Shown piece by piece: positions 1 through 64,000 of a stretch of 64,000 bases of DNA. Numbering within the stretch: position 1 is the first letter of the stretch; each line of letters begins with the position of its first letter. The DNA lies in the NCBI GenBank assembly GCA_963920705.1, contig OY987230.1, positions 1,116,001-1,180,000 of the forward strand, given 5' to 3'. A program made the position numbers and the translations under genes. Below the pieces are notes generated by a model, which did not search any database, had not been told where the DNA came from, and saw only the letters and a program-made list of their open reading frames with translations. The stretch is from Odiellus spinosus (taxonomy: Eukaryota; Arthropoda; Arachnida; Opiliones; Phalangiidae).

Positions 1-3
1 TGG

Positions 4-131
4 TTTTGTCTAAATTGCAAAATTGTGACAAATATAAAATTGGTTCAAATTAAGCAAAAACGCTTAAAAATCCAAGATTATTGGATTCAAATGGACACAA
101 AACTTTTGAATTTTAAGCGATTTAGACAAAA
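4..131 (+). repeat. Core module (reference copy, plus orientation)
   Basis: This is the asymmetric part of the unit. It is bounded by TTTTGTCTAAATTGC at 4-18 and GCGATTTAGACAAAA at 117-131, inverted repeats matching at 14 of 15 bases. Inside are two small dyads: AAGC...GCTT around the A tract at about 52-64, and CCAAGATTATTGG at 72-84. The next core starts at 387 and others follow throughout, in either orientation. Two length-neutral haplotypes alternate near the left end, GCAAAATTGTGAC and GCCAAAACGTGAC. The right part ends either TTTTGAATTTTAAGC or TTTTGATTTTTAAGC. Inverted terminal repeats would fit descent from a small non-autonomous DNA transposon, but no target-site duplication is visible, so this is only a possibility. 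Confidence 0.9.
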
Positions 132-147
132 TTAAGACCACTCGAAA

Positions 148-163
148 GACCAAATTTTGGTCT
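148..163. repeat. Short dyad GACCAAATTTTGGTC in arm a (reference copy)
   Basis: A near-perfect 15-bp palindrome (one central base unpaired) lies in arm a, next to the CTCGAAA motif. It recurs in most arm-a copies in either reading direction. Variants seen elsewhere are GAGCAAATATTGGTC, GACCAATATTTGCTC and, at about 9,927 and 12,606, GAGCAATACTTGCTC, where both half-sites have changed together. Half-sites changing in pairs could reflect conversion between arms, or selection on a dimeric protein's site; the sequence cannot distinguish these. No known binding factor is recognised. Confidence 0.7.
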
Positions 164-186
164 ATCTAAAAAACAAGAGTTTTGGA

Positions 187-333
187 AAATCCGTTGAAAA
201 ACATGGAAAATATGGACAATTCAAAAAACATCTAATATCAAAAAGCGAATTTTGAAAATCTGAAATTTGACTATTTTGATATTCTATGATTTCTTGAATT
301 GGCCATATTTTTATTGTTTTTCAACGGATTTTT
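187..333. repeat. Inner palindrome with invertible centre (reference copy)
   Basis: The best-conserved part of the hairpin pairs AAAATCCGTTGAAAAAC (from 187) with GTTTTTCAACGGATTTT (316-332), and AATATCAAAA (234-243) with TTTTGATATT (274-283), leaving a loop of about 30 bp (244-273). The two arm versions are ACATGGAAAATATGGACAAT with AAAAAACATCTAATATC, and ACAAGAAAAATATGGCCAAT with AAGAAATCATAGAATATC. In this copy the first version lies on the left. In other copies, for example from about 575 or 4,794, the second lies on the left, so the centre is inverted while the flanks are not. Mixed copies also occur (2,118-2,230 and 4,417-4,540), where both outer arms are the CAAG type around a CATCTAATATC-first centre. 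Confidence 0.9.
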
Positions 334-2298
334 GAAAACTCTTATTATTTAGACTGTCCATTAATTGCTCTTTCGAATGACTTTGGTTTTGTCTAAATTG
401 CAAAATTGTGACAAATATAAAATTGGTTAAAATTAAGCAAAAACGCTTAAAAATCCAAGATTATTGGATTCAAATGGACACAAAACTTTTGAATTTTAAG
501 CGATTTAGACAAAATTAAGACCACTCGAAAGACCAAATTTTGGTCTATCTAAAAAACAATAGTTTTGGAAAATCCGTTGAAAAACAAGAAAAATATGGCC
601 AATTCAAGAAATCATACAATATCAAAATAGTCAAATTTCAGATTTTAAAAATTCGCTTTTTGATATCAGATGTTTTTTGAATTGTCCATATTTTCCATGT
701 TTTTCAACGGATTTTCCAAAACTCTTGTTTTTTAGATAGACCAATATTTGCTCTTTCGAGTGGTCTTAATTTTGTCTAAATCGCTTAAAATTCAAAAGTT
801 TTGTGTCCATTTGAATCCAATAATCTTGGATTTTTAAGCGTTTTTGCTTAATTTTAACCAATTTTATATTTGTCACAATTTTGCAATTTAGACAAAACCA
901 AAGTCATTCGAAAGAGCAATTAATGGACAGTTTAAATAATAAGAGTTTTCAAAAATCCGTTGAAAAACAAGAAAAATATGGTAAATTCAAGAAATCATAG
1001 AATATCAAAATAGTCAAATTTCAGATTTTCAAAATTCGCTTTTTGATATTAGATGTTTTTTGAATTGTCCATATTTTCCATGTTTTTCAACGGATTTTTG
1101 AAAACTCTTATTATTTAAACTGTCCACTAATTGCTCTTTCGAATGACTTTGGTTTTGTCTAAATTGCAAAATTGTGACAAATATAAAATTGGTTAAAATA
1201 AAGCAAAAACGCTTAAAAATCCAAGATTATTGGATTCAAATGGACACAAAACTTTTGATTTTTAAGCGATTTAGACAAAATTAAGACCACTCGAAAGACC
1301 AAATTTTGGTCTATCTAAAAAACAAGAGTTTTGGAAAATCCGTTGAAAAACATGGAAAATATGGACAATTCAAAAAACATCTAATATCAAAAAGCGAATT
1401 TTGAAAATCTGAAATTTGATTATTTTGATATTCTATGATTTCTTGAATTGGCCACATTTTTCTTGTTTTTCAACGGATTTTTGAAAACTCTTATTATTTA
1501 GACTGTCCATTAATTGCTCTTTCGAATGACTTTGGTTTTGTCTAAATTGCAAAATTGTGACAAATATAAAATTGGTTAAAATTAAGCAAAAACGCTTAAA
1601 AATCCAAGATTATTGGATTCAAACGGACACAAAACTTTAGATTTTTAAGCGATTTAGACAAAATTAAGACCACTCGAAAGACCAAATTTTGGTCTATCTA
1701 AAAAACAATAGTTTTGGAAAATCCGTTGAAAAACAAGAAAAATATGGCCAATTCTAGAAATCATACAATATCAAAATAGTCAAATTTCAGATTTTAAAAA
1801 TTCGCTTTTTGATATTAGATGTTTTTTGAATTGTGCATATTTTCCATGTTTTTCAACGGATTTTCCAAAACTCTTGATTTTCAGATAGACCAATATTTGG
1901 TCTTTCGAGTGGTCTTAATTTTGTCTAAATCGCTTAAAAATCAAAAGTTTTGTGTCCATTTGAATCCAATAATCTTGGATTTTTAAGCGTTTTTGCTTAA
2001 TTTTAACCAATTTTATATTTGTCACAATTTTGCAATTTAGACAAAAACAAAGTCATTCGAAAGAGCAATTAATGGACAGTCTTAATAATAAGAGTTTTCA
2101 AAAATCCGTTGAAAAACAAGAAAAATATGGCCAATTCAAAAAACATATAATATCAAAAAGCGAATTTTGAAAATCTGAAATTTGACTATTTTGATATTCT
2201 ATGATTTCTTGAATTGTCCTCATTTTTCTTGTTTTTCAACGGATTTTTGAAAACTCTTATTATTTAGACTGTCCATTAATTGCTCTTTCGAATGACTT

Positions 2299-4490
2299 TG
2301 GTTTTGTCTAAATTGCAAAATTGTGACAAATATAAAATTGGTTCAAATTAAGCAAAAACGCTTAAAAATCCAAGATTATTGGATTCAAATGGACACAAAA
2401 CTTTTGAATTTTAAGCGATTTAGACAAAATTAAGACCACTCGAAAGACCAAATTTTGGTCTATCTAAAAAACAAGAGTTTTGGAAAATCCGTTGAAAAAC
2501 ATGGAAAATATGGACAATTCAAAAAACATCTAATATCAAAAAGCGAATTTTGAAAATCTGAAATTTGACTATTTTGATATTCTATGATTTCTTGAATTGG
2601 CCATATTTTTATTGTTTTTCAACGGATTTTTGAAAACTCTTATTATTTAGACTGTCCATTAATTGCTCTTTCGAATGACTTTGGTTTTGTCTAAATTGCA
2701 AAATTGTGACAAATATAAAATTGGTTAAAATTAAGCAAAAACGCTTAAAAATCCAAGATTATTGGATTCAAATGGACACAAAACTTTTGAATTTTAAGCG
2801 ATTTAGACAAAATTAAGACCACTCGAAAGACCAAATTTTGGTCTATCTAAAAAACAATAGTTTTGGAAAATCCGTTGAAAAACAAGAAAAATATGGCCAA
2901 TTCAAGAAATCATACAATATCAAAATAGTCAAATTTCAGATTTTAAAAATTCGCTTTTTGATATTAGATGTTTTTTGAATTGTCCATATTTTCCATGTTT
3001 TTCAACGGATTTTCCAAAACTCTTGTTTTTTAGATAGACCAATATTTGCTCTTTCGAGTGGTCTTAATTTTGTCTAAATCGCTTAAAATTCAAAAGTTTT
3101 GTGTCCATTTGAATCCAATAATCTTGGATTTTTAAGCGTTTTTGCTTAATTTTAACCAATTTTATATTTGTCACAATTTTGCAATTTAGACAAAACCAAA
3201 GTCATTCGAAAGAGCAATTAATGGACAGTTTAAATAATAAGAGATTTCAAAAATCCGTTGAAAAACAAGAAAAATATGGTAAATTCAAGAAATCATAGAA
3301 TATCAAAATAGTCAAATTTCAGATTTTCAAAATTCGCTTTTTGATATTAGATGTTTTTTGAATTGTCCATATTTTCCATGTTTTTCAACGGATTTTTGAA
3401 AACTCTTATTATTTAAACTGTCCACTAATTGCTCTTTCGAATGACTTTGGTTTTGTCTAAATTGCAAAATTGTGACAAATATAAAATTGGTTAAAATAAA
3501 GCAAAAACGTTTAAAAATCCAAGATTATTGGATTCAAATGGACACAAAACTTTTGATTTTTAAGCGATTTAGACAAAATTAAGACCACTCGAAAGACCAA
3601 ATTTTGGTCTATCTAAAAAACAAGAGTTTTGGAAAATCCGTTGAAAAACATGGAAAATATGGACAATTCAAAAAACATCTAATATCAAAAAGCGAATTTT
3701 GAAAATCTGAAATTTGATTATTTTGATATTCTATGATTTCTTGAATTGGCCATATTTTTCTTGTTTTTCAACGGATTTTTGAAAACTCTTATTATTTAGA
3801 CTGTCCATTAATTGCTCTTTCGAATGACTTTGGTTTTGTCTAAATTGCAAAATTGTGACAAATATAAAATTGGTTAAAATTAAGCAAAAACACTTAAAAA
3901 TCCAAGATTATTGGATTCAAATGGACACAAAACTTTTGAATTTTAAGCGATTTAGACAAAATTAAGACCACTCGAAAGACCAAATTTTGGTCTATCTAAA
4001 AAACAATAGTTTTGGAAAATCCGTTGAAAAACAAGAAAAATATGGCCAATTCAAGAAATCATAGAATATCAAAATAGTCAAATTTCAGATTTTCAAAATT
4101 CGCTTTTTGATATTAGATGTTTTTTGAATTGTCCATATTTTCCATGTTTTTCAACGGATTTTCCAAAACTCTTGTTTTTTAGATAGACCAAAATTAGGTC
4201 TTTCGAGTGGTCTTAATTTTGTCTAAATCGCTTAAAAATCAAAAGTTTTGTGTCCATTTGAATCCAATAATCTTGGATTTTTAAGCGTTTTTGCTTAATT
4301 TTAACCAATTTTATATTTGTCACAATTTTGCAATTTAGACAAAACCAAAGTCATTCGAAAGAGCAATTAATGGACAGTTTAAATAATAAGAGTTTTCAAA
4401 AATCCGTTGAAAAACAAGAAAAATATGGCCAATTCAAAAAACTTCTAATATCAAAAAGCGAATTTTGAAAATCTGAAATTTGACTATTTT
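2299..4490. repeat. Higher-order repeat H6, copy 2
   Basis: Tandem copy of the preceding six-unit block, same orientation order and same rare variants (TTTTTATTGTTTTTC near 2,604, GGTAAATTC near 3,277). The match to copy 1 is lost near 4,490. There the last hairpin ends in arm a (GGATTTTCCAAAACTATTG) instead of the arm b seen at the matching place in copy 1 (about 2,240), so the right boundary lies inside a palindrome. Confidence 0.83.
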
Positions 4491-5500
4491 GATATTGTAT
4501 GATTTCTTGAATTGGCCATATTTTTCTTGTTTTTCAACGGATTTTCCAAAACTATTGTTTTTTAGATAGACCAAAATTTGGTCTTTCGAGTGGTCTTAAT
4601 TTTGTCTAAATCGCTTAAAATTCAAAAGTTTTGTGTCCATTTGAATCCAATAATCTTGGATTTTTAAGCGTTTTTGCTTAATTTTAACCAATTTTATATT
4701 TGTCACGTTTTGGCAATTTAGACAAAACCAAAGTCATTCGAAAGAGCAATTAATGGACAGTCTAAATAATAAGAGTTTTCAAAAATCCGTTGAAAAACAA
4801 GAAAAATATGGCCAATTCAAGAAATCATAGAATATCAAAATAGTCAAATTTCAGATTTTCAAAATTCGCTTTTTGATATTAGATGTTTTTTGAATTGTCC
4901 ATATTTTCCATGTTTTTCAACGGATTTTCCAAAACTCTTGTTTTTTAGATAGACCAAAATTTGGTCTTTCGAGTGGTCTTAATTTTGTCTAAATCGCTTA
5001 AAAATCAAAAGTTTTGTGTCCATTTGAATCCAATAATCTTGGATTTTTAAGCGTTTTTGCTTAATTTTAACCAATTTTATATTTGTCACAATTTTGCAAT
5101 TTAGACAAAACAAAGTCATTCGAAAGAGCAATTAATGGACAGTTTAAATAATAAGAGTTTTCAAAAATCCGTTAAAAAACATGGAAAATATGGACAATTC
5201 AAAAAACATCTAATATCAAAAAGCGAATTTTGAAAATCTGAAATTTGACTATTTTGATATTCTATGATTTCTTGAATTGGCCATATTTTTCTTGTTTTTC
5301 AACGGATTTTCCAAAACTCTTGTTTTTTAGATAGACCAATATTTGCTCTTTCGAGTGGTCTTAATTTTGTCTAAATCGCTTAAAATTCAAAAGTTTTGTG
5401 TCCATTTGAATCCAATAATCTTGGATTTTTAAGCGTTTTTGCTTAATTTTAACCAATTTTATATTTGTCACAATTTTGCAATTTAGACAAAACCAAAGTC
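4374..5500 (-). repeat. Minus-oriented units related to the four-unit repeat
   Basis: The core order here is -, -(CACGTTTTGG type), -, -, the same order as the two tandem blocks at about 6,870-9,921. The marker CCGTTAAAAAACATGG (normally CCGTTGAAAAACATGG) near 5,171 is shared with about 7,851 and 9,383. It is probably an older copy of that block, separated from the others by the plus-oriented cassette at about 5,500-5,935. Confidence 0.6.
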
Positions 5501-26599: not shown

Positions 26600-28890
26600 C
26601 GTTGAAAAACAAGAAAAATATGGCCAATTCTAGAAATCATACAATATCAAAATAGTCAAATTTCAGATTTTAAAAAATCGCTTTTTGATTTTAGATGTTT
26701 TTTGAATTGTCCATATTTTCCATGTTTTCAACGGATTTTCCAAAACTCTTGATTTTCAGATAGACCTATATTTGCTCTTTCGAGTGGTCTTAATTTTGTC
26801 TAAATCGCTTAAAAATCAAAAGTTTTGTGTCCATTTGAATCCAATAATCTTGGATTTTTAAGCGTTTTTGCTTAATTTTAACCAATTTTATATTTGTTAC
26901 AATTTTGCAATTTAGACAAAACAAAGTCATTCGAAAGAGCAATTAATGGACAGTTTAAATAATAAGAGTTTTCAAAAATCCGTTGAAAATCAAGAAAAAT
27001 ATGGCCAATTCAAGAAATCGTAGAATATCAAAATAGTCAAATTTCAGATTTTCAAAATTCGCTTTTTGATATTAGATGTTTTTTAATTGTCCATATTTTC
27101 CATGTTTTTCAACGGATTTTCCAAAACTCTTGATTTTCAGATAGACCAATATTTGCTCTTTCGAGTGGTCTTAATTTTGTCTAAATCGCTTAAAAATCAA
27201 AAGTTTTGTGTCCATTTGAATCCAATAATCTTGGATTTTTAAGCGTTTTTGCTTAATTTTAACCAATTTTATATTTGTCACAATTTTGCAATTTAGACAA
27301 AAACAAAGTCATTCGAAAGAGCAATTAATGGACAGTCTTAATAATAAGAGTTTTCAAAAATCCGTTGAAAAACAAGAAAAATATGGCCAATTCAAAAAAC
27401 ATCTAATATCAAAAAGCGAATTTTGAAAATCTGAAATTTGACTATTTTGATATTCTATGATTTCTTGAATTGTCCACATTTTTCTTGTTTTTCAACGGAT
27501 TTTTGAAAACTCTTATTATTTAGACTGTCCATTAATTGCTCTTTCGAATGACTTTGGTTTTGTCTAAATTGCAAAATTGTGACAAATATAAAATTGGTTA
27601 AAATTAAACAAAAACGCTTAAAAATCCAAGATTATTGGATTCAAATGGACACAAAACTTTTGAATTTTAAGCGATTTAGACAAAATTAAGACCACTCGAA
27701 AGAGCAAATATTGGTCTATCTAAAAAACAATATTTTTGGAAAATCCGTTGAAAAACAAGAAAAATATGGCCAATTCTAGAAATCATACAATATCAAAATA
27801 GTCAAATTTCAGATTTTAAAAAATCGCTTTTTGATTTTAGATGTTTTTTGAATTGTCCATATTTTCCATGTTTTCAACGGATTTTCCAAAACTCTTGATT
27901 TTCAGATAGACCTATATTTGCTCTTTCGAGTGGTCTTAATTTTGTCTAAATCGCTTAAAAATCAAAAGTTTTGTGTCCATTTGAATCCAATAATCTTGGA
28001 TTTTTAAGCGTTTTTGCTTAATTTTAACCAATTTTATATTTGTCACAATTTTGCGATTTAGACAAAACAAAGTCATTCGAAAGAGCAATTAATGGACAGT
28101 TTAAATAATAAGAGTTTTCAAAAATCCGTTGAAAAACAAGAAAAATATGGCCAATTCAAGAAATCATAGAATATCAAAATAGTCAAATTTCAGATTTTCA
28201 AAATTCGCTTTTTGATATTAGATGTTTTTTGAATTGTCCATATTTTCCATGTTTTTCAACGGATTTTCCAAAACTCTTGATTTTCAGATAGACCAATATT
28301 TGCTCTTTCGAGTGGTCTTAATTTTGTCTAAATCGCTTAAAAATCAAAAGTTTTGTGTCCATTTGAATCCAATAATCTTGGATTTTTAAGCGTTTTTGCT
28401 TAATTTTAACCAATTTTATATTTGTCACAATTTTGCAATTTAGACAAAAACAAAGTCATTCGAAAGAGCAATTAATGGACAGTCTTAATAATAAGAGTTT
28501 TCAAAAATCCGTTGAAAAACAAGAAAAATATGGCCAATTCAAAAAACATCTAATATCAAAAAGCGAATTTTGAAAATCTGAAATTTGACTATTTTGATAT
28601 TCTATGATTTCTTGAATTGTCCACATTTTTCTTGTTTTTCAACGGATTTTTGAAAACTCTTATTATTTAGACTGTCCATTAATTGCTCTTTCGAATGACT
28701 TTGGTTTTGTCTAAATTGCAAAATTGTGACAAATATAAAATTGGTTAAAATTAAGCAAAAACGCTTAAAAATCCAAGATTATTGGATTCAAATGGACACA
28801 AAACTTTTGAATTTTAAGCGATTTAGACAAAATTAAGACCACTCGAAAGAGCAAATATTGGTCTATCTAAAAAACAAGAGTTTTGGAAAA
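26600..28890. repeat. Three-unit repeat, two copies (~1,147 bp)
   Basis: Core order + - - twice. Shared rare variants are a hairpin centre with AAAAAATCGCTTTTTGATTTT (about 26,671 and 27,818), an arm lacking one T (CATGTTTTCAACGG, 26,721 and 27,867) and GATAGACCTATATTTGC (about 26,759 and 27,905). Confidence 0.78.
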
Positions 28891-31800
28891 TCCGTTGAAA
28901 AACATGGAAAATATGGACAATTCAAAAAACATCTAATATCAAAAATCGAATTTTTAAAATCTGAAATTTTACTATTTTGATATTGTATGATTTCTTGAAT
29001 TGGCCATATTTTTCTTGTTTTTCAACGGATTTTCCAAAACTATTGTTTTTTAGATAGACCAAAATTTGGTCTTTCGAGTGGTCTTAATTTTGTCTAAATC
29101 GCTTAAAATTCAAAAGTTTTGTGTCCATTTGAATCCAATAATCTTGGATTTTTAAGCGTTTTTGCTTAATTTTACCAATTTTATATTTGTCACAATTTTG
29201 CAATTTAGACAAAACCAAAGTCATTCGAAAGAGCAATTAATGGACAGTCTAAATAATAAGAGTTTTCAAAAATCCGTTGAAAAACAAGAAAAATATGGCC
29301 AATTCAAGAAATCATAGAATATCAAAATAGTCAAATTTCAGATTTTCAAAATTCGCTTTTTGATATTAGATGTTTTTTGAATTGTCCATATTTTCCATGT
29401 TTTTCAACGGATTTTCCAAAACTCTTGTTTTTTAGATAGACCAAACTTTGGTCTTTCGAGTGGTCTTAATTTTGACTAAATCGCTTAAAAATCAAAAGTT
29501 TTGTGTCCATTTGAATCCAATTATCTTGGATTTTTAAGCGTTTTTGCTTAATTTTAACCAATTTTATATTTGTCACAATTTTGCAATTTAGACAAAACCA
29601 AAGTCATTCGAAAGAGCAATTAATGGACAGTTTAAATAATAAGAGTTTTCAAAAATCCGTTGAAAAACATGGAAAATATGGACAATTCAAAAAACATCTA
29701 ATATCAAAAAGCGAATTTTGAAAATCTGAAATTTGACTATTTTGATATTCTCTGATTTCTTGAATTGTCCATATTTTTCTTGTTTTTCAACGGATTTTTG
29801 AAAACTCTTATTATTTAGACTGTCCATTAATTGCTCTTTCGAATGACTTTGGTTTTGTCTAAATTGCAAAATTGTGACAAATATAAAATTGGTTAAAATT
29901 AAGCAAAAACGCTTAAAAATCCAAGATTATTGGATTTAAATGGACACAAAACTTTTGAATTTTAAGCGATTTAGACAAAATTAAGACCACTCGAAAGACA
30001 AAATTTTGGTCTATCTAAAAAACAATAGTTTTGGAAAATCCGTTGAAAAACAAGAAAAATATGGCCAATTCAAGAAATCATAGAATATCAAAATAGTCAA
30101 ATTTCAGATTTTAAAAATTCGCTTTTTGATTTTAGATGTTTTTTGAATTGTCCATATTTTCCATGTTTTTCAACGGATTTTCCAAAACTCTTGATTTTCA
30201 GATAGACCAATATTTGCTCTTTCGAGTGGTCTTAATTTTGTCTAAATTGCTTAAAAATCAAAAGTTTTGTGTCCATTTTAATCCAATAATCTTGGATTTT
30301 TAAGCGTTTTTGCTTAATTTTAACCAATTTTATATTTGTCACAATTTTGCAATTTAGACAAAAACAAAGTCATTCGAAAGAGCAATTAATGGACAGTCTT
30401 AATAATAAGAGTTTTCAAAAATCCGTTGAAAAACAAGAAAAATATGGCCAATTCAAAAAACATCTAATATCAAAAAGCGAATTTTGAAAATCTGAAATTT
30501 GACTATTTTGATATTCTATGATTTCTTGAATTGTCCACATTTTTCTTGTTTTTCAACGGATTTTTGAAAACTCTTATTATTTAGACTGTCCATTAATTGC
30601 TCTTTCGAATGACTTTGGTTTTGTCTAAATTGCAAAATTGTGACAAATATAAAATTGGTTAAAATTAAGCAAAAACGCTTAAAAATCCAAGATTATTGGA
30701 TTCAAATGGACACAAAACTTTTGAATTTTAAGCGATTTAGACAAAATTAAGACCACTCGAAAGAGCAAATATTGGTCTATCTAAAAAACAAGAGTTTTGG
30801 AAAATCCGTTGAAAAACATGGAAAATATGGACAATTCAAAAAACATCTAATATCAAAAATCGAATTTTTAAAATCTGAAATTTTACTATTTTGATATTGT
30901 ATGATTTCTTGAATTGGCCATATTTTTCTTGTTTTTCAACGGATTTTCCAAAACTATTGTTTTTTAGATAGACCAAAATTTGGTCTTTCGAGTGGTCTTA
31001 ATTTTGTCTAAATCGCTTAAAATTCAAAAGTTTTGTGTCCATTTGAATCCAATAATCTTGGATTTTTAAGCGTTTTTGCTTAATTTTACCAATTTTATAT
31101 TTGTCACAATTTTGCAATTTAGACAAAACCAAAGTCATTCGAAAGAGCAATTAATGGACAGTCTAAATAATAAGAGTTTTCAAAAATCCGTTGAAAAACA
31201 AGAAAAATATGGCCAATTCAAGAAATCATAGAATATCAAAATAGTCAAATTTCAGATTTTCAAAATTCGCTTTTTGATATTAGATGTTTTTTGAATTGTC
31301 CATATTTTCCATGTTTTTCAACGGATTTTCCAAAACTCTTGTTTTTTAGATAGACCAAACTTTGGTCTTTCGAGTGGTCTTAATTTTGTCTAAATCGCTT
31401 AAAAATCAAAAGTTTTGTGTCCATTTGAATCCAATAATCTTGGATTTTTAAGCGTTTTTGCTTAATTTTAACCAATTTTATATTTGTCACAATTTTGCAA
31501 TTTAGACAAAACCAAAGTCATTCGAAAGAGCAATTAATGGACAGTTTAAATAATAAGAGTTTTCAAAAATCCGTTGAAAAACATGGAAAATATGGAAAAT
31601 TCAAAAAACATCTAATATCAAAAAGCGAATTTTGAAAATCTGAAATTTGACTATTTTGATATTCTCTGATTTCTTGAATTGTCCATATTTTTCTTGTTTT
31701 TCAACGGATTTTTGAAAACTCTTATTATTTTGACTGTCCATTAATTGCTCTTTCGAATGACTTTGGTTTTGTCTAAATTGCAAAATTGTGACAAATATAA

Positions 31801-34440
31801 AATTGGTTAAAATTAAGCAAAAACGCTTAAAAATCCAAGATTATTGGATTCAAATGGACACAAAACTTTTGAATTTTAAGCGATTTAGACAAAATTAAGA
31901 CCACTCGAAAGACCAAATTTTGGTCTATCTAAAAAACAATAGTTTTGGAAAATCCGTTGAAAAACAAGAAAAATATGGCCAATTCAAGAAATCATAGAAT
32001 ATCAAAATAGTCAAATTTCAGATTTTAAAAATTCGCTTTTTGATTTTAGATGTTTTTTGAATTGTCCATATTTTCCATGTTTTTCAACGGATTTTCCAAA
32101 ACTCTTGATTTTCAGATAGACCAATATTTGCTCTTTCGAGTGGTCTTAATTTTGTCTAAATTGCTTAAAAATCAAAAGTTTTGTGTCCATTTTAATCCAA
32201 TAATCTTGGATTTTTAAGCGTTTTTGCTTAATTTTAACCAATTTTATATTTGTCACAATTTTGCAATTTAGACAAAAACAAAGTCATTCGAAAGAGCAAT
32301 TAATGGACAGTCTTAATAATAAGAGTTTTCAAAAATCCGTTGAAAAACAAGAAAAATATGGCCAATTCAAAAAACATCTAATATCAAAAAGCGAATTTTG
32401 AAAATCTGAAATTTGACTATTTTGATATTCTATGATTTCTTGAATTGTCCACATTTTTCTTGTTTTTCAACGGATTTTTGAAAACTCTTATTATTTAGAC
32501 TGTCCATTAATTGCTCTTTCGAATGACTTTGGTTTTGTCTAAATTGCAAAATTGTGACAAATATAAAATTGGTTAAAATTAAGCAAAAACGCTTAAAAAT
32601 CCAAGATTATTGGATTCAAATGGACACAAAACTTTTGAATTTTAAGCGATTTAGACAAAATTAAGACCACTCGAAAGAGCAAATATTGGTCTATCTAAAA
32701 AACAAGAGTTTTGGAAAATCCGTTGAAAAGCATGGAAAATATGGACAATTCAAAAAACATCTAATATCAAAAAGCGAATTTTTAAAATCTGAAATTTGAC
32801 TATTTTGATATTGTATGATTTCTTGAATTGGCCATATTTTTCTTGTTTTTCAACGGATTTTCCAAAACTATTGTTTTTTAGATAGACCAAAATTTGGTCT
32901 TTCGAGTGGTCTTAATTTTGTCTAAATCGCTTAAAATTCAAAAGTTTTGTGTCCATTTGAATCCAATAATCTTGGATTTTTAAGCGTTTTTGCTTAATTT
33001 TAACCAATTTTATATTTGTCACAATTTTGCAATTTAGACAAAACCAAAGTCATTCGAAAGAGCAATTAATGGACAGTCTAAATAATAAGAGTTTTCAAAA
33101 ATCCGTTGAAAAACAAGAAAAATATGGCCAATTCAAGAAATCATAGAATATCAAAATAGTCAAATTTCAGATTTTCAAAATTCGCTTTTTGATATTAGAT
33201 GTTTTTTGAATTGTCCATATTTTCCATGTTTTTCAACGGATTTTCCAAAACTCTTGTTTTTTAGATAGACCAAAATTTGGTCTTTCGAGTGGTCTTAATT
33301 TTGTCTAAATCGCTTAAAAATCAAAAGTTTTGTGTCCATTTGAATCCAATAATCTTGGATTTTTAAGCGTTTTTGCTTAATTTTAACCAATTTTATATTT
33401 GTCACAATTTTGCAATTTAGACAAAACCAAAGTCATTCGAAAGAGCAATTAATGGACAGTTTAAATAATAAGAGTTTTCAAAAATGCGTTGAAAAACATG
33501 GAAAATATGGACAATTCAAAAACATCTAATATCAAAAAGCGAATTTTGAAAATCTGAAATTTGACTATTTTGATATTCTATGATTTCTTGAATTGGCCAT
33601 ATTTTTCTTGTTTTTCAACGGATTTTTGAAAACTCTTATTATTTAGACTGTCCATTAATTGCTCTTTCGAATGACTTTGGTTTTGTCTAAATTGCAAAAT
33701 TGTGACAAATATAAAATTGGTTAAAATTAAGCAAAAACGCTTAAAAATCCAAGATTATTGGATTCAAATGGACACAAAACTTTTGAATTTTAAGCGATTT
33801 AGACAAAATTAAGACCACTCGAAAGACCAAATTTTGGTCTATCTAAAAAACAATAATTTTGGAAAATCCGTTGAAAAACAAGAAAAATATGGCCAATTCA
33901 AGAAATCATAGAATATCAAAATAGTCAAATTTCAGATTTTCAAAATTCGCTTTTTGATATTAGATGTTTTTTGAATTGTCCATATTTTCCATGTTTTTCA
34001 ACGGATTTTCCAAAACTCTTGATTTTCAGATAGACCAATATTTGCTCTTTCGAGTGGTCTTAATTTTGTCTAAATCGCTTAAAAATCAAAAGTTTTGTGT
34101 CCATTTGAATCCAATAATCTTGGATTTTTAAGCGTTTTTGCTTAATTTTAACCAATTTTATATTTGTCACAATTTTGCAATTTAGACAAAACCAAAGTCA
34201 TTCGAAAGAGCAATTAATGGACAGTCTAAATAATAAGAGTTTTCAAAAATCCGTTGAAAAAAAAGAAAAATATGGCCAATTCAAGAAATCATAGAATATC
34301 AAAATAGTCAAATTTCAGATTTTCAAAATTCGCTTTTTGATATTAGATGTTTTTTGAATTGTCCATATTTTCCATGTTTTTCAACGGATTTTTGAAAACT
34401 CTTATTATTTAGACTCTCCATTAATTGCTCTTTCGAATGA
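28700..34440. repeat. Higher-order repeat H5, three five-unit copies (1,914 bp)
   Basis: Core order + - - + - occurs three times, starting near 28,700, 30,614 and 32,528. Copies 1 and 2 share TCAAAAATCGAATTTTTA (about 28,938 and 30,852), TTTTACCAATTTT with a lost A (about 29,170 and 31,084) and a TCTCTGATTTC centre (29,750 and 31,664), all at an offset of 1,914 bp. Copies 2 and 3 line up through the orientation order, but copy 3 lacks several of these markers, so it is older or has been converted. Confidence 0.82.
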
Positions 34441-35199
34441 CTTTGGTTTTGTCTAAATTGCAAAATTGTGACAAATATAAAATTGGTTAAAATTAAGCAA
34501 AAACGCTTAAAAATCCAAGATTATTGGATTCAAATGGACACAAAACTTTTGATTTTTAAGCGATTTAGACAAAATTAAGACCACTCGAAAGAGCAAATAT
34601 TGGTCTATCTGAAAATCAAGAGTTTTGGAAAATCCGTTGAAAAACATGGAAAATATGGACAATTCAAAAAACATCTAATATCAAAAAGCGAATTTTGAAA
34701 ATCTGAAATTTGACTATTTTGATATTCTATGATTTCTTGAATTGGCCATATTTTTCTTGTTTTTCAACGGATTTTCCAAAACTATTGTTTTTTAGATAGA
34801 CCAAAATTTGGTCTTTCGAGTGGTCTTAATTTTGTCTAAATCGCTTAAAATTCAAAAGTTTTGTGTCCATTTGAATCCTATAATCTTGGATTTTTAAGCG
34901 TTTTTGCTTAATTTTAACCAATTTTATATTTATCACAATTTTGCAATTTAGACAAAACCAAAGTCATTCGAAAGAGCAATTAATGGACAGTCTAAATAAT
35001 AAGAGTTTTCAAAAATCCGTTGAAAAACAAGAAAAATATGGCCAATTCAAGAAATCATAGAATATCAAAATAGTCAAATTTCAGATTTTCAAAATTCGCT
35101 TTTTGATATTAGATGTTTTTTGAATTGTCCATATTTTCCATGTTTTTCAACGGATTTTTGAAAACTCTTATTATTTAAACTGTCCATTAATTGCTCTTT

Positions 35200-37465
35200 C
35201 GAATGACTTTGGTTTTGTCTAAATTGCAAAATTGTGACAAATATAAAATTGGTTAAAATTAAGCAAAAACGCTTAAAAATCCAAGATTATTGGATTCAAA
35301 TGGACACAAAACTTTTGATTTTTAAGCGATTTAGACAAAATTAAGACCACTCGAAAGACCAAATTTTGGTCTATCTAAAAAACAAGAGTTTTGGAAAATC
35401 CGTTGAAAAACATGGAAAATATGGACAATTCAAAAAACATCTAATATCAAAAAGCGAATTTTGAAAATCTGAAATTTGACTATTTTGATATTCTATGATT
35501 TCTTGAATTGGCCATATTTTTCTTGTTTTTCAACGGATTTTTGAAAACTCTTATTATTTAGACTATCCATTAATTGCTCTTTTGAATGACTTTGGTTTTG
35601 TCTAAATTGCAAAATTGTGACAAATATAAAATTGGTTAAAATTAAGCAAAAACGCTTAAAAATCCAAGATTATTGGATTCAAATGGACACAAAACTTTTG
35701 AATTTTAAGCGATTTAGACAAAATTAAGACCACTCGAAAGACCAAATTTTGGTCTATCTAAAAAACAATAGTTTTGGAAAATCCGTTGAAAAACAAGAAA
35801 AATATGGCCAATTCTAGAAATCATACAATATCAAAATAGCCAAATTTCAGATTTTAAAAATTCGCTTTTTGATATTAGATGTTTTTTGAATTGTCCATAT
35901 TTTCCATGTTTTTCAACGGATTTTCCAAAACTCTTGATTTTCAGATAGACCAATATTTGCTCTTTCGAGTGGTCTTATTTTTGTCTAAATCGCTTAAAAA
36001 TCAAAAGTTTTGTGTCCATTTGAATCCAATAATCTTGGATTTTTAAGCGTTTTTGCTTAATTTTAACCAATTTTATATTTGTCACAATTTTGCAATTTAG
36101 ACAAAACCAAAGTCATTCGAAAGAGCAATTAATGGACAGTCTAAATAATAAGAGTTTTCAAAAATCCGTTGAAAAACAAGAAAAATATGGCCAATTCAAG
36201 AAATCATAGAATATCAAAATAGTCAAATTTCAGATTTTCAAAATTCGCTTTTTGATATTAGATGTTTTTTGAATTGTCCATATTTTCCATGTTTTTCAAC
36301 GGATTTTTGAAAACTCTTATTATTTAAACTGTCCATTAATTGCTCTTTCGAATGACTTTGGTTTTGTCTAAATTGCAAAATTGTGACAAATATAAAATTG
36401 GTTAAAATTAAGCAAAAACGCTTAAAAATCCAAGATTATTGGATTCAAATGGACACAAAACTTTTGATTTTTAAGCGATTTAGACAAAATTAAGACCACT
36501 CGAAAGAGCAAATATTGCTCTATCTAAAAAACAAGAGTTTTGGAAAATCCGTTGAAAAACATGGAAAATATGGACAATTCAAAAAACATCTAATATCAAA
36601 AAGCGAATTTTGAAAATCTGAAATTTGACTATTTTGATATTCTATGATTTCTTGAATTGGCCATATTTTTCTTGTTTTTCAACGGATTTTTGAAAACTCT
36701 TATTATTTAGACTGTCCATTAATTGCTCTTTAGAATGACTTTGGTTTTGTCTAAATTGCAAAATTGTGACAAATATAAAATTGGTTAAAATTAAGCAAAA
36801 ACGCTTAAAAATCCAAGATTATTGGATTCAAATGGACACAAAACTTTTGATTTTTAAGCGATTTAGACAAAATTAGACCACTCGAAAGACCAAATTTTGG
36901 TCTATCTAAAAAACAAGAGTTTTGGAAAATCCGTTGAAAAACATGGAAAATATGGACAATTCAAAAAACATCTAATATCAAAAAGCGAATTTTGAAAATC
37001 TGAAATTTGACTATTTTGATATTCTATGATTTCTTGAATTGGCCATATTTTTCTTGTTTTTCAACGGATTTTTGAAAACTCTTATTATTTAGACTATCCA
37101 TTAATTGCTCTTTTGAATGACTTTGGTTTTGTCTAAATTGCAAAATTGTGACAAATATAAAATTGGTTAAAATTAAGCAAAAACGCTTAAAAATCCAAGA
37201 TTATTGGATTCAAATGGACACAAAACTTTTGAATTTTAAGCGATTTAGACAAAATTAAGACCACTCGAAAGACCAAATTTTGGTCTATCTAAAAAACAAT
37301 AGTTTTGGAAAATCCGTTGAAAAACAAGAAAAATATGGCCAGTTCTAGAAATCATACAATATCAAAATAGTCAAATTTCAGATTTTAAAAATTCGCTTTT
37401 TGATATTAGATGTTTTTTGAATTGTCCATATTTTCCATGTTTTTCAACGGATTTTCCAAAACTCT
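35200..37465 (+). repeat. Partial four-unit repeat (1,531 bp offset)
   Basis: The segment about 35,330-35,930 matches 36,865-37,465 at 1,531 bp, with private variants GACTATCCATTAATTGC and CTCTTTTGAATG (35,561 and 37,092), and a TTCTAGAAATC centre. Outside this the two copies differ. A one-base loss in the linker (CAAAATTAGACCACTCG) occurs near 36,870. Confidence 0.68.
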
Positions 37466-47317: not shown

Positions 47318-47420
47318 TTTTGTCTAAATTGCAAAATTGTGACAAATATAAAATTGGTTAAAATTAAGCAAAAACGCTTAAAAATCCAAGATTATTGGAT
47401 TCAAATGGACACAAAACTTT

Positions 47421-47440
47421 TGATTTTTAAGACCACTCGA
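47421..47440 (+). repeat. 19-bp deletion at the core/arm boundary
   Basis: TGATTTTTAAG runs straight into ACCACTCG, so the usual CGATTTAGACAAAATTAAG is absent. The right terminal inverted repeat of this core is therefore lost. TAAG is present at both edges of the lost segment, fitting a direct-repeat deletion. Confidence 0.85.
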
Positions 47441-48580: not shown

Positions 48581-50029
48581 GATTATTGGATTCAAATGGA
48601 CACAAAACTTTTGAATTTTAAGCGATTTAGACAAAATTAAGACCACTCGAAAGAGCAAATATTGGTCTATCTAAAAAACAAGAGTTTTGGAAAATCCGTT
48701 GAAAAACATGGAAAATATGGACAATTCAAAAAACATCTAATATCAAAAAGCGAATTTTTAAAATCTGAAATTTGACTATTTTGATATTGTATGATTTCTT
48801 GAATTGGCCATATTTTTCTTGTTTTTCAACGGATTTTCCAAAACTATTGTTTTTTAGATAGACCAAAATTTCGTCTTTCGAGTGGTCTTAATTTTGTCTA
48901 AATCGCTTAAAATTCAAAAGTTTTGTGTCCATTTGAATCCAATAATCTTGGATTTTTATGCGTTTTTGCTTAATTTTAACCAATTTTATATTTGTCACAA
49001 TTTTGCAATTTAGACAAAACCAAAGTCATTCTAAAGAGCAATTAATGGACAGTCTAAATAATAAGAGTTTTCAAAAATCCGTTGAAAAACAAGAAAAATA
49101 TGGCCAATTCAAGAAATCATAGAATATCAAAATAGTCAAATTTCAGATTTTCAAAATTCGCTTTTTGATATTAGATGTTTTTTGAATTGTCCATATTTTC
49201 CATGTTTTTCAACGGATTTTCCAAAACTCTTGTTTTTTAGATAGACCAAGATTTGGTCTTTCGAGTGGTCTTAATTTTGTCTAAATCGCTTAAAAATCAA
49301 AAGTTTTGTGTCCATTTGAATCCAATAATCTTGGATTTTTAAGCGTTTTTGCTTAATTTTAACCAATTTTATATTTGTCACAATTTTGCAATTTAGACAA
49401 AACCAAAGTCATTCGAAAGAGCAATTAATGGACAGTCTAAATAATAAGAGTTTTCAAAAATCCGTTGAAAAACATGAAAAATATGGCCAATTCAAGAAAT
49501 CATAGAATATCAAAATAGTCAAATTTCAGATTTTCAAAATTCGCTTTTTGATATTAGATGTTTTTTGAATTGTCCATATTTTCCATGTTTTTCAACGGAT
49601 TTTTGAAAACTCTTATTATTTCAACTGTCCATTAATTGCTCTTTCGAATGACTTTGGTTTTGTCTAAATTGCAAAATTGTGACAAATATAAAATTGGTTA
49701 AAATTAAGCAAAAACGCTTAAAAATCCAAGATTATTGGATTCAAATGGACACAAAACTTTTGATTTTTAAGCGATTTAGACAAAATTAAGACCACTCGAA
49801 AGACCAAATTTTGGTCTATCTAAAAAACAAGAGTTTTGGAAAATCCGTTGAAAAACATGGAAAATATGGACAATTCAAAAAACATCTAATATCAAAAAGC
49901 GAATTTTGAAAATCTGAAATTTGACTATTTTGATATTCTATGATTTCTTGAATTGGCCATATTTTTCTTGTTTTTCAACGGATTTTTGAAAACTCTTATT
50001 ATTTAGACTGTCCATTAATTGCTCTTTCG

Positions 50030-58600: not shown

Positions 58601-58860
58601 CATTCGAAAGAGCAATTAATGGACAGTTTAAATAATAAGAGTTTTCAAAAATCCGTTGAAAAACATGGAAAATATGGACAATTCAAAAAACATCTAATAT
58701 CAAAAAGCGAATTTATAAAATCTGAAATTTGACTATTTTGATATTCTATGATTTCTTGAATTGGCCATATTTTTCTTGTTTTTCAACGGATTTTTGAAAA
58801 CTCTTATTATTTACACTGTCCATTAATTGCTCTTTCGAATGACTTTGGTTTTGTCTAAAT

Positions 58861-61800
58861 TGCCAAAACGTGACAAATATAAAATTGGTTAAAATTAAGC
58901 AAAAACGCTTAAAAATCCAAGATTATTGGATTCAAATGGACACAAAACTTTTGAATTTTAAGCGATTTAGACAAAATTAAGACCACTCGAAAGACCAAAT
59001 TTTGGTCTATCTAAAAAACAATAGTTTTGGAAAATCCGTTGAAAAACAAGAAAAATATGGCCAATTCTAGAAATCATACAATATCAAAATAGTCAAATTT
59101 CAGATTTTCAAAATTCGCTTTTTGATATTAGATGTTTTTTGAATTGTCCATATTTTCCATGTTTTTCAACGGATTTTTGAAAACTCTTATTATTTGAACT
59201 GTCCATTAATTGCTCTTTCGAATGACTTTGTTTTGTCTAAATTGCAAAATTGTGACAAATATAAAATTGGTTAAAATTAAGCAAAAACGCTTAAAAATCC
59301 AAGATTATTGGATTCAAATGGACACAAAACTTTTGATTTTTAAGCGATTTAGACAAAATTAAGACCAAATTTTGGTCTATCTAAAAAACAAGAGTTTTGG
59401 AAAATCCGTTGAAAAACATGGAAAATATGGACAATTCAAAAAACATCTAATATCAAAAAGCGAATTTTGAAAATCTGAAATTTGACTATTTTGATATTCT
59501 ATGATTTCTTGAATTGGCCATATTTTTCTTGTTTTTCAACGGATTTTTGAAAACTCTTATTATTTAGACTGTCCATTAATTGCTCTTTCGAATGACTTTG
59601 GTTTTGTCTAAATTGCCAAAACGTGACAAATATAAAATTGGTTAAAATTAAGCAAAAACGCTTAAAAATCCAAGATTATTGGATTCAAATGGACACAAAA
59701 CTTTTGAATTTTAAGCGATTTAGACAAAATTAAGACCACTCGAAAGACCAAATTTTGGTCTATCTAAAAAACAATAGTTTTGGAAAATCCGTTGAAAAAC
59801 AAGAAAAATATGGCCAATTCTAGAAATCATACAATATCAAAATAGTCAAATTTCAGATTTTCAAAATTCGCTTTTTGATATTAGATGTTTTTTGAATTGT
59901 CCATATTTTCCATGTTTTTCAACGGATTTTTGAAAACTCTTATTATTTAAACTGTCCATTAATTGCTCTTTCGAATGACTTTGTTTTGTCTAAATTGCAA
60001 AATTGTGACAAATATAAAATTGGTTAAAATTAAGCAAAAACGCTTAAAAATCCAAGATTATTGGATTCAAATGGACACAAAACTTTTGATTTTTAAGCGA
60101 TTTAGACAAAATTAAGACCAAATTTTGGTCTATCTAAAAAACAAGAGTTTTGGAAAATCCGTTGAAAAACTTGGAAAATATGGACAATTCAAAAAACATC
60201 TAATATCAAAAAGCGAATTTTGAAAATCTGAAATTTGACTATTTTGATATTCTATGATTTCTTGAATTGGCCATATTTTTCTTGTTTTTCAACGGATTTT
60301 TGAAAACTCTTATTATTTAGACTGTCCATTAATTGCTCTTTCGAATGACTTTGGTTTTGTCTAAATTGCCAAAACGTGACAAATATAAAATTGGTTAAAA
60401 TTAAGCAAAAACGCTTAAAAATCCAAGATTATTGGATTCAAATGGACACAAAACTTTTGAATTTTAAGCGATTTAGACAAAATTAAGACCACTCGAAAGA
60501 CCAAATTTTGGTCTATCTAAAAAACAATAGTTTTGGAAAATCCGTTGAAAAACAAGAAAAATATGGCCAATTCTAGAAATCATACAATATCAAAATAGTC
60601 AAATTTCAGATTTTCAAAATTCGCTTTTTGATATTAGATGTTTTTTGAATTGTCCATATTTTCCATGTTTTTCAACGGATTTTTGAAAACTCTTATTATT
60701 TAAACTGTCCATTAATTGCTCTTTCGAATGACTTTGTTTTGTCTAAATTGCAAAATTGTGACAAATATAAAATTGGTTAAAATTAAGCAAAAACGCTTAA
60801 AAATCCAAGATTATTGGATTCAAATGGACACAAAACTTTTGATTTTTAAGCGATTTAGACAAAATTAAGACCAAATTTTGGTCTATCTAAAAAACAAGAG
60901 TTTTGGAAAATCCGTTGAAAAACTTGGAAAATATGGACAATTCAAAAAACATCTAATATCAAAAAGCGAATTTTGAAAATCTGAAATTTGACTATTTTGA
61001 TATTCTATGATTTCTTGAATTGGCCATATTTTTCTTGTTTTTCAACGGATTTTTGAAAACTCTTATTATTTAGACTGTCCATTAATTGCTCTTTCGAATG
61101 ACTTTGGTTTTGTCTAAATTGCCAAAACGTGACAAATATAAAATTGGTTCAAATTAAGCAAAAACGCTTAAAAATCCAAGATTATTGGATTCAAATGGAC
61201 ACAAAACTTTTGAATTTTAAGCGATTTAGACAAAATTAAGACCACTCGAAAGACCAAATTTTGGTCTATCTAAAGAACAATAGTTTTGGAAAATCCGTTG
61301 AAAAACAAGAAAAATATGGCCAATTCTAGAAATCATACAATATCAAAATAGTCAAATTTCAGATTTTCAAAATTCGCTTTTTGATATTAGATGTTTTTTG
61401 AATTGTCCATATTTTCCATGTTTTTCAACGGATTTTTGAAAACTCTTATTATTTAAACTGTCCATTAATTGCTCTTTCGAATGACTTTGTTTTGTCTAAA
61501 TTGCAAAATTGTGACAAATATAAAATTGGTTAAAATTAAGCAAAAACGCTTAAAAATCCAAGATTATTGGATTCAAATGGACACAAAACTTTTGATTTTT
61601 AAGCGATTTAGACAAAATTAAGACCAAATTTTGGTCTATCTAAAAAACAAGAGTTTTGGAAAATCCGTTGAAAAACTTGGAAAATATGGACAATTCAAAA
61701 AACATCTAATATCAAAAAGCGAATTTTGAAAATCTGAAATTTGACTATTTTGATATTCTATGATTTCTTGAATTGGCCATATTTTTCTTGTTTTTCAACG

Positions 61801-62625
61801 GATTTTTGAAAACTCTTATTATTTAGACTGTCCATTAATTGCTCTTTCGAATGACTTTGGTTTTGTCTAAATTGCCAAAACGTGACAAATATAAAATTGG
61901 TTCAAATTAAGCAAAAACGCTTAAAAATCCAAGATTATTGGATTCAAATGGACACAAAACTTTTGAATTTTAAGCGATTTAGACAAAATTAAGACCACTC
62001 GAAAGACCAAATTTTGGTCTATCTAAAGAACAATAGTTTTGGAAAATCCGTTGAAAAACAAGAAAAATATGGCCAATTCTAGAAATCATACAATATCAAA
62101 ATAGTCAAATTTCAGATTTTCAAAATTCGCTTTTTGATATTAGATGTTTTTTGAATTGTCCATATTTTCCATGTTTTTCAACGGATTTTTGAAAACTCTT
62201 ATTATTTAAACTGTCCATTAATTGCTCTTTCGAATGACTTTGTTTTGTCTAAATTGCAAAATTGTGACAAATATAAAATTGGTTAAAATTAAGCAAAAAC
62301 GCTTAAAAATCCAAGATTATTGGATTCAAATGGACACAAAACTTTTGATTTTTAAGCGATTTAGACAAAATTAAGACCAAATTTTGGTCTATCTAAAAAA
62401 CAAGAGTTTTGGAAAATCCGTTGAAAAACATGGAAAATATGGACAATTCAAAAAACATCTAATATCAAAAAGCGAATTTTGAAAATCTGAAATTTGACTA
62501 TTTTGATATTCTATGATTTCTTGAATTGGCCATATTTTTCTTGTTTTTCAACGGATTTTTGAAAACTCTTATTATTTAGACTGTCCATTAATTGCTCTTT
62601 CGAATGACTTTGGTTTTGTCTAAAT
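58861..62625 (+). repeat. Higher-order repeat H2: five tandem 753-bp dimers, all plus
   Basis: GCCAAAACGTGAC cores recur at 58,861, 59,614, 60,367, 61,120, 61,873 and 62,626, each exactly 753 bp apart, alternating with GCAAAATTGTGAC cores. The second unit of each dimer lacks 12 bp in arm a, so AAGACCAAATTTTGG directly follows the core (59,361, 60,114, 60,868, 61,620, 62,373), and has one G fewer in ACTTTGTTTTGTC; 766 minus 13 gives 753. Subsets share AACTTGGAAAAT (60,170, 60,923, 61,676), GGTTCAAATTAAGC and CTAAAGAACAATAG (the last two dimers), so the copies arose stepwise. This is the most uniform part of the window. Confidence 0.92.
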
Positions 62626-64000
62626 TGCCAAAACGTGACAAATATAAAATTGGTTAAAATTAAGCAAAAACGCTTAAAAATCCAAGATTATTGGATTCAA
62701 ATGGACACAAAACTTTTGAATTTTAAGCGATTTAGACAAAATTAAGACCACTCGAAAGACCAAATTTTGGTCTATCTAAAAAACAATAGTTTTGGAAAAT
62801 CCGTTGAAAAACAAGAAAAATATGGCCAATTCTAGAAATCATACAATATCAAAATAGTCAAATTTCAGATTTTCAAAATTCGCTTTTTGATATTAGATGT
62901 TTTTTGAATTGTCCATATTTTCCATTTTTTTCAACGGATTTTCCAAAACTCTTGTTTTTTAGATAGAACAATATTTGCTCTTTCGAGTGGTCTTAATTTT
63001 GTCTAAATCGCTTAAAAATCAAAAGTTTTGTGTCCATTTGAATCCAATAATCTTGGATTTTTAAGCGTTTTTGCTTAATTTTAACCAATTTTATATTTGT
63101 CACAATTTTGCCATTTAGACAAAACAAAGTCATTCGAAAGAGCAATTAATGGACAGTTTAAATAATAAGAGTTTTCAAAAATCCGTTGAAAAACATGGAA
63201 AATATGGACAATTCAAAAAACATCTAATATCAAAAAGCGAATTTTGAAAATCTGAAATTTGACTATTTTGATATTCTATGATTTCTTGAATTGGCCATAT
63301 TTTTCTTGTTTTTCAACGGATTTTCCAAAACTATTGTTTTTTAGAAAGATTAAAATTTGGTCTTTCGAGTGGTCTTAATTTTGTCTAAATCGCTTAAAAT
63401 TCAAAAGTTTTGTGTCCATTTGAATCCAATAATCTTGGATTTTTAAGCGTTTTTGCTTAATTTTAACCAATTTTATATTTGTCACGTTTTGGCAATTTAG
63501 ACAAAACCAAAGTCATTCGAAAGAGCAATTTATGGACAGTCTAAATAATAAGAGTTTTCAAAAATCCGTTGAAAAACAAGAAAAATATGGCCAGTTCAAG
63601 AAATCATAGAATATCAAAATAGTCAAATTTCAGATTTTCAAAATTCGCTTTTTGATATTAGATGTTTTTTGAATTGTCCATATTTTCCATGTTTTTCAAC
63701 TGATTTTCCAAAACTCTTGTTTTTTAGATAGACCAAAATTTGGTCTTTCGAGTGGTCTTAATTTTGTCTAAATCGCTTAAAAATCAAAAGTTTTGTGTCC
63801 ATTTGAATCCAATAATCTTGGATTTTTAAGCGTTTTTGCTTAATTTTAACCAATTTTATATTTGTCACAATTTTGCAATTTAGACAAAACCAAAGTCATT
63901 CGAAAGAGCAATTAATGGACAGTCTAAATAATAAGAGTTTTCAAAAATCCGTTGAAAAACAAGAAAAATATGGCCAATTCAAGAAATCATAGAATATCAA
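62626..64000. repeat. End of dimer array and return to minus units
   Basis: A sixth GCCAAAACGTGAC unit begins at 62,626, but near 62,940 its hairpin ends in arm a and the following three cores are minus. The switch from the all-plus block to minus units therefore sits in a palindrome. The array continues beyond 64,000, where the window stops inside a hairpin centre. Confidence 0.8.

What the first reader, a model, noticed from the sequence alone, without database searches (positions are those of the whole stretch)
1..64000. Satellite with two nested, independently invertible modules
The tandem period stays at 383 bp although the core points either way (about 69 plus, 99 minus), and the hairpin centre points either way independently of its neighbours. 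For example, + to - junctions at 523-770 and - to - junctions at 4,374-4,610 and 4,750-4,990 carry different centre orientations. Each inversion preserves length because its breakpoints fall in the palindromic arms. Simple unequal exchange gives head-to-tail arrays, so some inversion process is needed (intrachromatid exchange between arms, cruciform resolution, or replication fork template switching). I know of satellites with inverted subrepeats, but not one with this two-level flipping; novelty is unverified.
Basis: partly seen in the sequence, partly recalled or inferred. Interest (0 to 1): 0.85.

Follow-up and report, generated by a model that had tools for sequence, protein, structure and literature searches.

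The report
Palindrome-armed satellite with flipped modules
A harvestman chromosome carries millions of bases of a 383-base repeat whose two parts point either way, apparently because a few old inversions at built-in mirror-image sequences were copied many times and then made further flips easy.

Summary
The window is one array (chromosome 6, harvestman Odiellus spinosus) in which two modules alternate: P (core plus outer arms, 256-bp step) and Q (hairpin centre, 127-bp step), joined by a 16-bp arm r or its reverse complement. P is 68 plus/98 minus, Q 77 X/89 Y; all eight P-Q-P combinations occur. The core stays with its outer arms in 165 of 166; breakpoints lie at r, or in a minority deeper in the Q arm.

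Free, independent flipping is only partly right. Four fetched transposon copies, 10 kb of contig C77, a diverged array edge and, by strand, a chromosome 5 array are head-to-tail, so scrambling looks derived. The derived A-Y junction carries a SNP (T) in 7,332 of 8,643 exact copies genome-wide, against 397 of 34,293 for the ancestral A-X junction. This points to few founder inversions copied many times. Near-identical blocks differing by one flipped module do exist (13 P pairs, 3 Q pairs), each time with the flipped module between inverted copies of its neighbour, as ordinary recombination would give. The same units sit inside a young foldback transposon with 9-bp target duplications.

The parts
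1..64000 (.). satellite array, 383-bp period, part of a scrambled domain on chromosome 6 (G000:C6:1116001-1180000)
   Evidence: TRF, 167.3 copies; place; satellite at 7 of 7 sampled places from C6:1 to 3.0 Mb; at 9 of 9 from 3.05 to 3.45 Mb, absent at 3.50 Mb
315..586 (+). P module, plus (B arm - core - A arm), shown with both 16-bp r arms
571..713 (-). Q module (hairpin centre), orientation Y, between a plus and a minus P: A-Y and A-X junctions
571..586 (+). arm r (AATCCGTTGAAAAACA): main inversion breakpoint tract, here in a derived A-Y junction
   Evidence: (sequence)
560..560 (+). SNP T (P site 246), marker of the main A-Y lineage
   Evidence: genome-wide counts
698..969 (-). P module, minus
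954..1096 (-). Q module, orientation Y, between minus and plus P: B-Y and B-X junctions
1337..1479 (+). Q module X between two plus P modules: ancestral head-to-tail junctions A-X and B-Y
4401..4543 (+). Q module X between two minus P modules (both junctions derived)
4784..4926 (-). Q module Y between two minus P modules (ancestral junctions)
58637..62953 (+). local 753-bp higher-order repeat (5 successive 259-bp P copies at 753-bp spacing), sign of recent local duplication
28121..35169 (+). pair of overlapping 5.1-kb direct copies (98.8%), offset 1,914 bp: multi-unit block duplication
30035..36690 (.). 3.2-kb inverted near-copies (98.2%): multi-unit inverted block

Best explanation
A head-to-tail satellite whose unit has a palindromic hairpin suffered a few inversions at the 16-18 bp identical tract of the hairpin arms (some deeper in the arm). 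Shown: two derived junctions (A-Y, B-X) exist in thousands of copies; A-Y is strongly and B-X less strongly tied to linked variants; multi-unit blocks are duplicated. Inferred: a P next to such a junction often lies between two inverted copies of Q, and a Q between two inverted copies of P; ordinary homologous exchange or conversion between those flanking inverted copies then flips the module in between without changing length or making a new junction. So rare events turned a stable array into a self-shuffling one, and unequal exchange amplified it. The trigger of the founder events (cruciform, fork template switch) is not resolved.
For: Strict r/R alternation and module scoring. Head-to-tail: 4 of 4 fetched transposon copies (only A-X and B-Y), 10 kb of contig C77, 2 kb at the diverged start of C261, and by strand a C5 array at 1.80-1.88 Mb, 40 of 40 listed A-X hits plus. 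For A-Y and B-X the first listed place is on C6; lists appear to run in contig order, so no exact derived junction lies on C1-C5. Marker: T at P site 246 in 125 of 134 A-Y versus 1 of 233 A-X satellite modules sampled; genome-wide exact 41-mers T 7,332 of 8,643 A-Y and 397 of 34,293 A-X. Linkage to A-Y is 0.94 at site 246 and 0.25 or less at sites 38, 92 and 131. A second breakpoint class: 34 of 371 satellite Q copies carry the other arm's outer bases (AAC), 32 of 34 between two B arms. Flip isomers: 13 P pairs, all with differently oriented flanking Qs (background 214 of 346), 3 Q pairs, all with differently oriented flanking Ps (background 166 of 345). A midpoint-rooted tree puts the diverged head-to-tail edge deepest and scrambled copies innermost.
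Against: About 15% of A-Y junctions lack the T marker (1,311 of 8,643), which leaves room for repeated flips at r. Linkage is not monotone with distance: 0.34 at sites 242 and 237, then 0.60 at 225 and 0.62 at 179. B-X is less clean: site 38 A in 83 of 130. Isomer pairs share members and are few; in 4 of the 13 P pairs the centres are too different to score and may be recombinants rather than flips. A flip in the other context would need a P or Q with two derived junctions, and P of that type is rare (23 of 397), so the 13-of-13 result is partly built in. P types use neighbour orientation, so only the SNP tests are independent of it. P with both junctions derived is rare in the window (2 of 164) but not everywhere (7 of 24 on C20). 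The tree root is a midpoint, and only 3 of 42 inner branches are strongly supported. No raw reads were seen.
Confidence: 0.68

Rival explanations
1. Continual independent flipping of P and Q at the hairpin arms, by cruciform resolution, fork template switching or a site-specific recombinase acting on r.
For: Breakpoints cluster in the same 16-18 bp tract; predicted hairpins are strong (means -70 to -124 against about -17 for shuffles of one stretch); 1,311 of 8,643 A-Y junctions lack the founder SNP.
Against: SNP-junction linkage genome-wide; other arrays with the same kind of arms are head-to-tail; a second breakpoint class inside the Q arm argues against one fixed recombinase site.
Confidence: 0.15
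2. Assembly artefact: the mixed order was made by the assembler.
For: No reads could be checked; the array is megabases of near-identical repeats, and C6 starts inside it.
Against: 48 of 82 P runs in the window are one unit long and the longest is 11 units, about 4.2 kb, within the 12-20 kb average fragments sheared for HiFi sequencing; assembly QV 60.6 (PMC11503004, parts 1-2 of 4 read). The same orientation word occurs in L001 and L002 (C262), L003 (C100), L006 and L008 (C6), though these loci were picked for matching one query. The same assembly also shows uniform arrays.
Confidence: 0.05
3. The array was built by repeated insertion of the foldback transposon, whose two halves carry the modules in opposite directions.
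For: The dispersed element has left half P minus/Q Y and right half P plus/Q X.
Against: 33 transposon ends were found (up to 2 mismatches), none on C6 or on C20, C77, C100, C112, C261, C262; the 4 fetched elements have only ancestral junctions; element and satellite P modules differ by 5.9-7.3% on average (8.5% for one edge module) against 1.9-3.4% within satellite groups; for Q the gap is smaller, 4.0-5.1% (9.4% for the edge) against 0.6-3.8% (12.6% within the edge).
Confidence: 0.05
4. Selection for palindromes: the inverted state is favoured because long dyads help centromeric or heterochromatic chromatin, as proposed for Tribolium.
For: Megabase block at the start of chromosome 6 with a TTAGG-type telomere at the other end; inverted contexts fold more strongly (-115 and -124) than same-way contexts (-74 and -70).
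Against: No centromere data; head-to-tail arrays of the same satellite persist. Compatible with the best explanation rather than against it.
Confidence: 0.12

Closest known systems
Tribolium madens TmSat1/TmSat2 (macro-dyad satellites; PMC13081366: abstract, section 7, and part 1 of 2 of section 10 read)
   Same: Satellites with orientation changes in megabase regions, a palindrome-like TmSat2 monomer, a few inversion-site types that are conserved and differ from the normal subunits, and a proposed origin by ectopic recombination between similar subunits.
   Different: There kilobase subarrays invert, mostly two per array; here two parts of one 383-bp unit change orientation, often from unit to unit, and length is kept.
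Tetris / TIR-220 of Drosophila virilis (PMC4079207: passages read, abstract in part)
   Same: Non-autonomous foldback transposon with tandem repeats in its inverted ends that also form satellite arrays.
   Different: Arrays there have up to 66 copies; here megabases. The transposase source was not found there; here a 10.7-kb relative with open frames shares the ends. Orientation scrambling is not described in the passages I saw.
385-bp satellite of Trichogramma brassicae and 1,061-bp satellite of Tribolium brevicornis (known only as cited in PMC13081366)
   Same: Long inverted repeats inside the monomer (80 bp and about 470 bp as cited).
   Different: Sequences were not compared; free orientation of parts is not mentioned in the passage seen.

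Membership tests
Satellite DNA | long tandem arrays of near-identical units | tested here: met
Satellite DNA, strict head-to-tail form | all units in one direction | tested here: not met
   for the window; met in the 10 kb read of C77 (L029)
Macro-dyad satellite (Tribolium type) | kilobase subarrays of one direction meeting at conserved inversion sites | tested here: not met
   48 of 82 P runs are one unit long, longest 11 units, about 4.2 kb; junction types with private variants are present
Mutator-like foldback element (dispersed copies, not the array) | long terminal inverted repeats and about 9-bp target duplications | tested here: met
   9-bp duplications in L054, L055, L056 and the 10.7-kb copy L058/L059; L057 only 7 bp; that Mutator elements make 9-bp duplications is recalled
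Mutator-like foldback element (dispersed copies, not the array) | MULE transposase | tested here: inconclusive
   494-aa ORF of the 10.7-kb relative has no Pfam match at E<=1; no PF10551 match listed within the foldback copies
Site-specific invertible element | dedicated recombinase and fixed crossover site | tested here: inconclusive
   main tract at r, but a second breakpoint class lies inside the Q arm; no recombinase was sought

The most novel reading that the evidence does not exclude
A satellite can undergo a self-propagating change of state: an inversion at built-in palindromic arms creates modules flanked by inverted copies of their neighbours, so that later flips are easy, length-neutral and junction-neutral; the scrambled form then overtakes the head-to-tail form and fills megabases with long palindromes, possibly to a chromosomal end such as centromere function.
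Probability: 0.35. Interest if true: 0.75.

Novelty: new variant of a known kind. Interest (0 to 1): 0.55.

Why it matters
It offers a natural record of how inversions start and spread in a tandem array: head-to-tail, partly inverted and scrambled arrays in one genome, with SNP markers that separate inherited inversions from fresh ones. That makes inversion rates and mechanism in satellite DNA testable, and bears on why some centromere-linked satellites are rich in palindromes.

Tried and rejected
A fuzzy scan of seven probes timed out with no output; replaced by a mismatch scan. A phrase search for a 383-bp satellite found no paper. ARAGORN found no tRNA in the mitochondrial contig, so host identity came from sizes. 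PF10551 had 72 matches, none listed inside the foldback copies. Core flipping at its own inner inverted pair: rejected (165 of 166). Array as stacked transposons: rejected. Direction between satellite and transposon stays open: the midpoint tree has the diverged satellite edge deepest, which leans to capture of satellite by the transposon, but the root is not secure.

Rows left out: typing used the window and 28 of the fetched loci; L001-L008 (picked by one query) and L026 were not counted. P outside 262-280 bp were dropped (376 of 397 kept, 9 of them from transposons) and Q outside 140-146 bp (390 of 397 kept, 19 from transposons). One search took every third window module. The tree used 54 chosen rows. 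Flip isomers were sought in 9 sequences, window included.
Full report
HOST AND PLACE. The window is G000:C6:1116001-1180000 of a 443,074,358-base assembly in 286 contigs. The COX1 and COX2 frames of the 16,074-base mitochondrial contig are adjacent, with no room for a tRNA between them, which is not the usual insect order (recalled). The harvestman Odiellus spinosus assembly has chromosome 6 at 24.91 Mb, chromosome 15 at 13.74 Mb, a 16.07-kb mitochondrion and a longest scaffold of 35,433,943 bp (PMC11503004, parts 1 and 2 of 4 read). Contig lengths here are 24,909,123 (C6), 13,741,978 (C17), 16,074 (C286) and 35,433,943 (C1). I take the host to be that species; the published total, 443,687,896 bp in 310 scaffolds, is 0.6 Mb and 24 sequences larger, which I did not explain. 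On C6 the satellite was present at 7 of 7 places sampled from base 1 to 3.0 Mb and at 9 of 9 from 3.05 to 3.45 Mb, and absent at 3.50 Mb; the far end of C6 is a TTAGG-type repeat.

ANATOMY. Arms r and R alternate 167 and 167 times with one failure. Between R and r lies P: B arm, core, A arm. Between r and R lies Q, the hairpin centre, with an X end and a Y end. P is 68 plus and 98 minus, Q 77 X and 89 Y; the outer arms stay with their core in 165 of 166. P forms 82 runs, 48 of them one unit long, the longest 11. In strand-free terms Q contexts are +X+ 60, +X- 41, -X+ 40, +Y+ 24 and P contexts X+Y 63, Y+X 62, X+X 38, Y+Y 2 (165 each; 1 of each spans the gap at 19,453).

ANCESTRAL STATE. The 37-base pattern r-X occurs 32,238 times in the genome and its reversed control none. 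At the window's density of one per 512 bases this is about 16.5 Mb, a rough figure because density ran from one per 400 to one per 5,000 bases in 11 sequences. Searches also listed short dispersed sites on C1 to C5. Four were fetched (L054-L057): elements of 4.6-5.5 kb with inverted ends GGCTCCGTCAACTTGG, target duplications of 9 bp in three and 7 bp in the fourth, left part P minus/Q Y and right part P plus/Q X. Two copies are 99.98% identical over 5,522 bases. Ends occur 33 times (up to 2 mismatches): 13 exact-end pairs 3.6-5.8 kb apart, one 10.7-kb pair with one mismatch at each end, and 5 single ends. The 10.7-kb copy (C7) has a 9-bp duplication, ends 97.6-98.0% like the short copies over 1 kb, no P or Q match, and open frames of 494, 387 (ubiquitin-hydrolase match just below its cut-off) and 220 aa. 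The four fetched elements have only A-X and B-Y junctions. In the sampled DNA, 24 of 24 typed P of C77 and 23 of 30 of C261 have both junctions ancestral; the array at C5:1.80-1.88 Mb has 40 of 40 listed A-X hits on the plus strand. The window and the sampled 10 kb of C100, C262, C20 and C112 are scrambled.

FOUNDERS, NOT FREE FLIPS. In 367 satellite P modules, site 246 is T in 108 of 112 P1 and 17 of 22 P3 (A-Y present) and, by subtraction from the total of 126, in 1 of 233 P0 plus P2 (A-X); the 9 transposon modules have G, C77 has G with one A. Genome-wide exact 41-mers: A-Y with T 7,332, A-Y with G 1,311, A-X with T 397, A-X with G 33,896. Linkage to A-Y is weak at far sites (0.25 at 38, 0.24 at 92, 0.18 at 131) but not monotone: 0.34 at 242 and 237, 0.60 at 225, 0.62 at 179. 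B-X carries weaker markers (site 38 A in 83 of 130). A separate class of 34 of 371 satellite Q modules has outer arm bases of the opposite end, 32 of 34 between two B arms: these breakpoints lie deeper in the arm, which fits exchange by homology rather than at one fixed site.

LATER FLIPS. I looked for blocks whose two or more neighbouring modules on each side match within 2 differences per module while the centre is reversed, in 9 sequences. There were 13 such P pairs (126 same-way) and 3 Q pairs (162 same-way). All 13 P cases lie between Qs of unlike orientation and all 3 Q cases between Ps of unlike orientation, against background shares of 214 of 346 and 166 of 345. Pairs share members, and flips in the other context would need the rare doubly derived type (P3 23 of 397), so no p-value is claimed. 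In 9 of 13 P pairs and 3 of 3 Q pairs the centres differ by at most 4 bases; 4 P centres were too different to score. Conversion from an oppositely placed copy would look the same as inversion. Direct blocks to 5.1 kb and inverted blocks to 3.2 kb at 98% or more show that multi-unit segments move too.

STRUCTURE. Q with 75 bases each side folds at a mean of -115 and -124 in the two inverted contexts and -74 and -70 in the two same-way contexts (12 each; 20 shuffles of one stretch about -17). The script asked for DNA parameters if available, so only the comparison matters.

COMPARISON. The closest published case I saw is Tribolium madens, with conserved inversion sites in palindrome-rich satellites but at subarray scale. 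The foldback link resembles Tetris of Drosophila virilis. Six literature searches concerned satellites; in their listings (titles and starts of abstracts) I saw no harvestman satellite and no satellite with two parts of the monomer in free orientation. Subscription papers are largely missing from that library, so absence in print is not shown.

VERDICT. Real and unusual; best explained by rare founder inversions plus ordinary recombination: a new variant of a known kind.

Noticed in passing
L054 1687-7207, L055, L056, L057 (C3, C5, C1, C2): Young foldback transposon copies carrying the satellite modules in both inverted halves; two are 99.98% identical.
   Followed up: yes
L058 + L059 (C7:12543801-12554542): 10.7-kb relative with the same ends, a 9-bp duplication and open frames of 494, 387 and 220 aa; the first has no Pfam match, the second a weak ubiquitin-hydrolase match. 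Degraded relatives of the 494-aa frame at C84 (two) and C1, and a fragment on C12.
   Followed up: partly
G000:C7 12.39-12.60 Mb: Cluster of transposon ends: two exact pairs, the 10.7-kb copy and two stray ends within about 0.2 Mb.
   Followed up: no
window 58637-62953: Five successive 753-bp repeats with a 13-bp shorter P: a fresh local higher-order repeat.
   Followed up: partly
window 41268-41467 and 44256-44455; 48376-48708: P modules 72 bp shorter (two copies, inside a 3.8-kb direct duplication) and one 61 bp longer.
   Followed up: no
L026 (C261:1-2000): Array edge of diverged copies, full-length P 84-90% identical to the window P majority sequence, head-to-tail, with left r arms that often no longer match R.
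   Followed up: partly
G000:C5 1.80-1.88 Mb: Array on another chromosome with all 40 listed A-X hits on the plus strand.
   Followed up: no
G000:C17, for example 3.13 and 4.38 Mb: Several COX1-like stretches with TGA codons in a 13.7-Mb contig: probably mitochondrial insertions.
   Followed up: no
L054 2-841: 29-bp tandem repeat, 29 copies, near a transposon copy.
   Followed up: no
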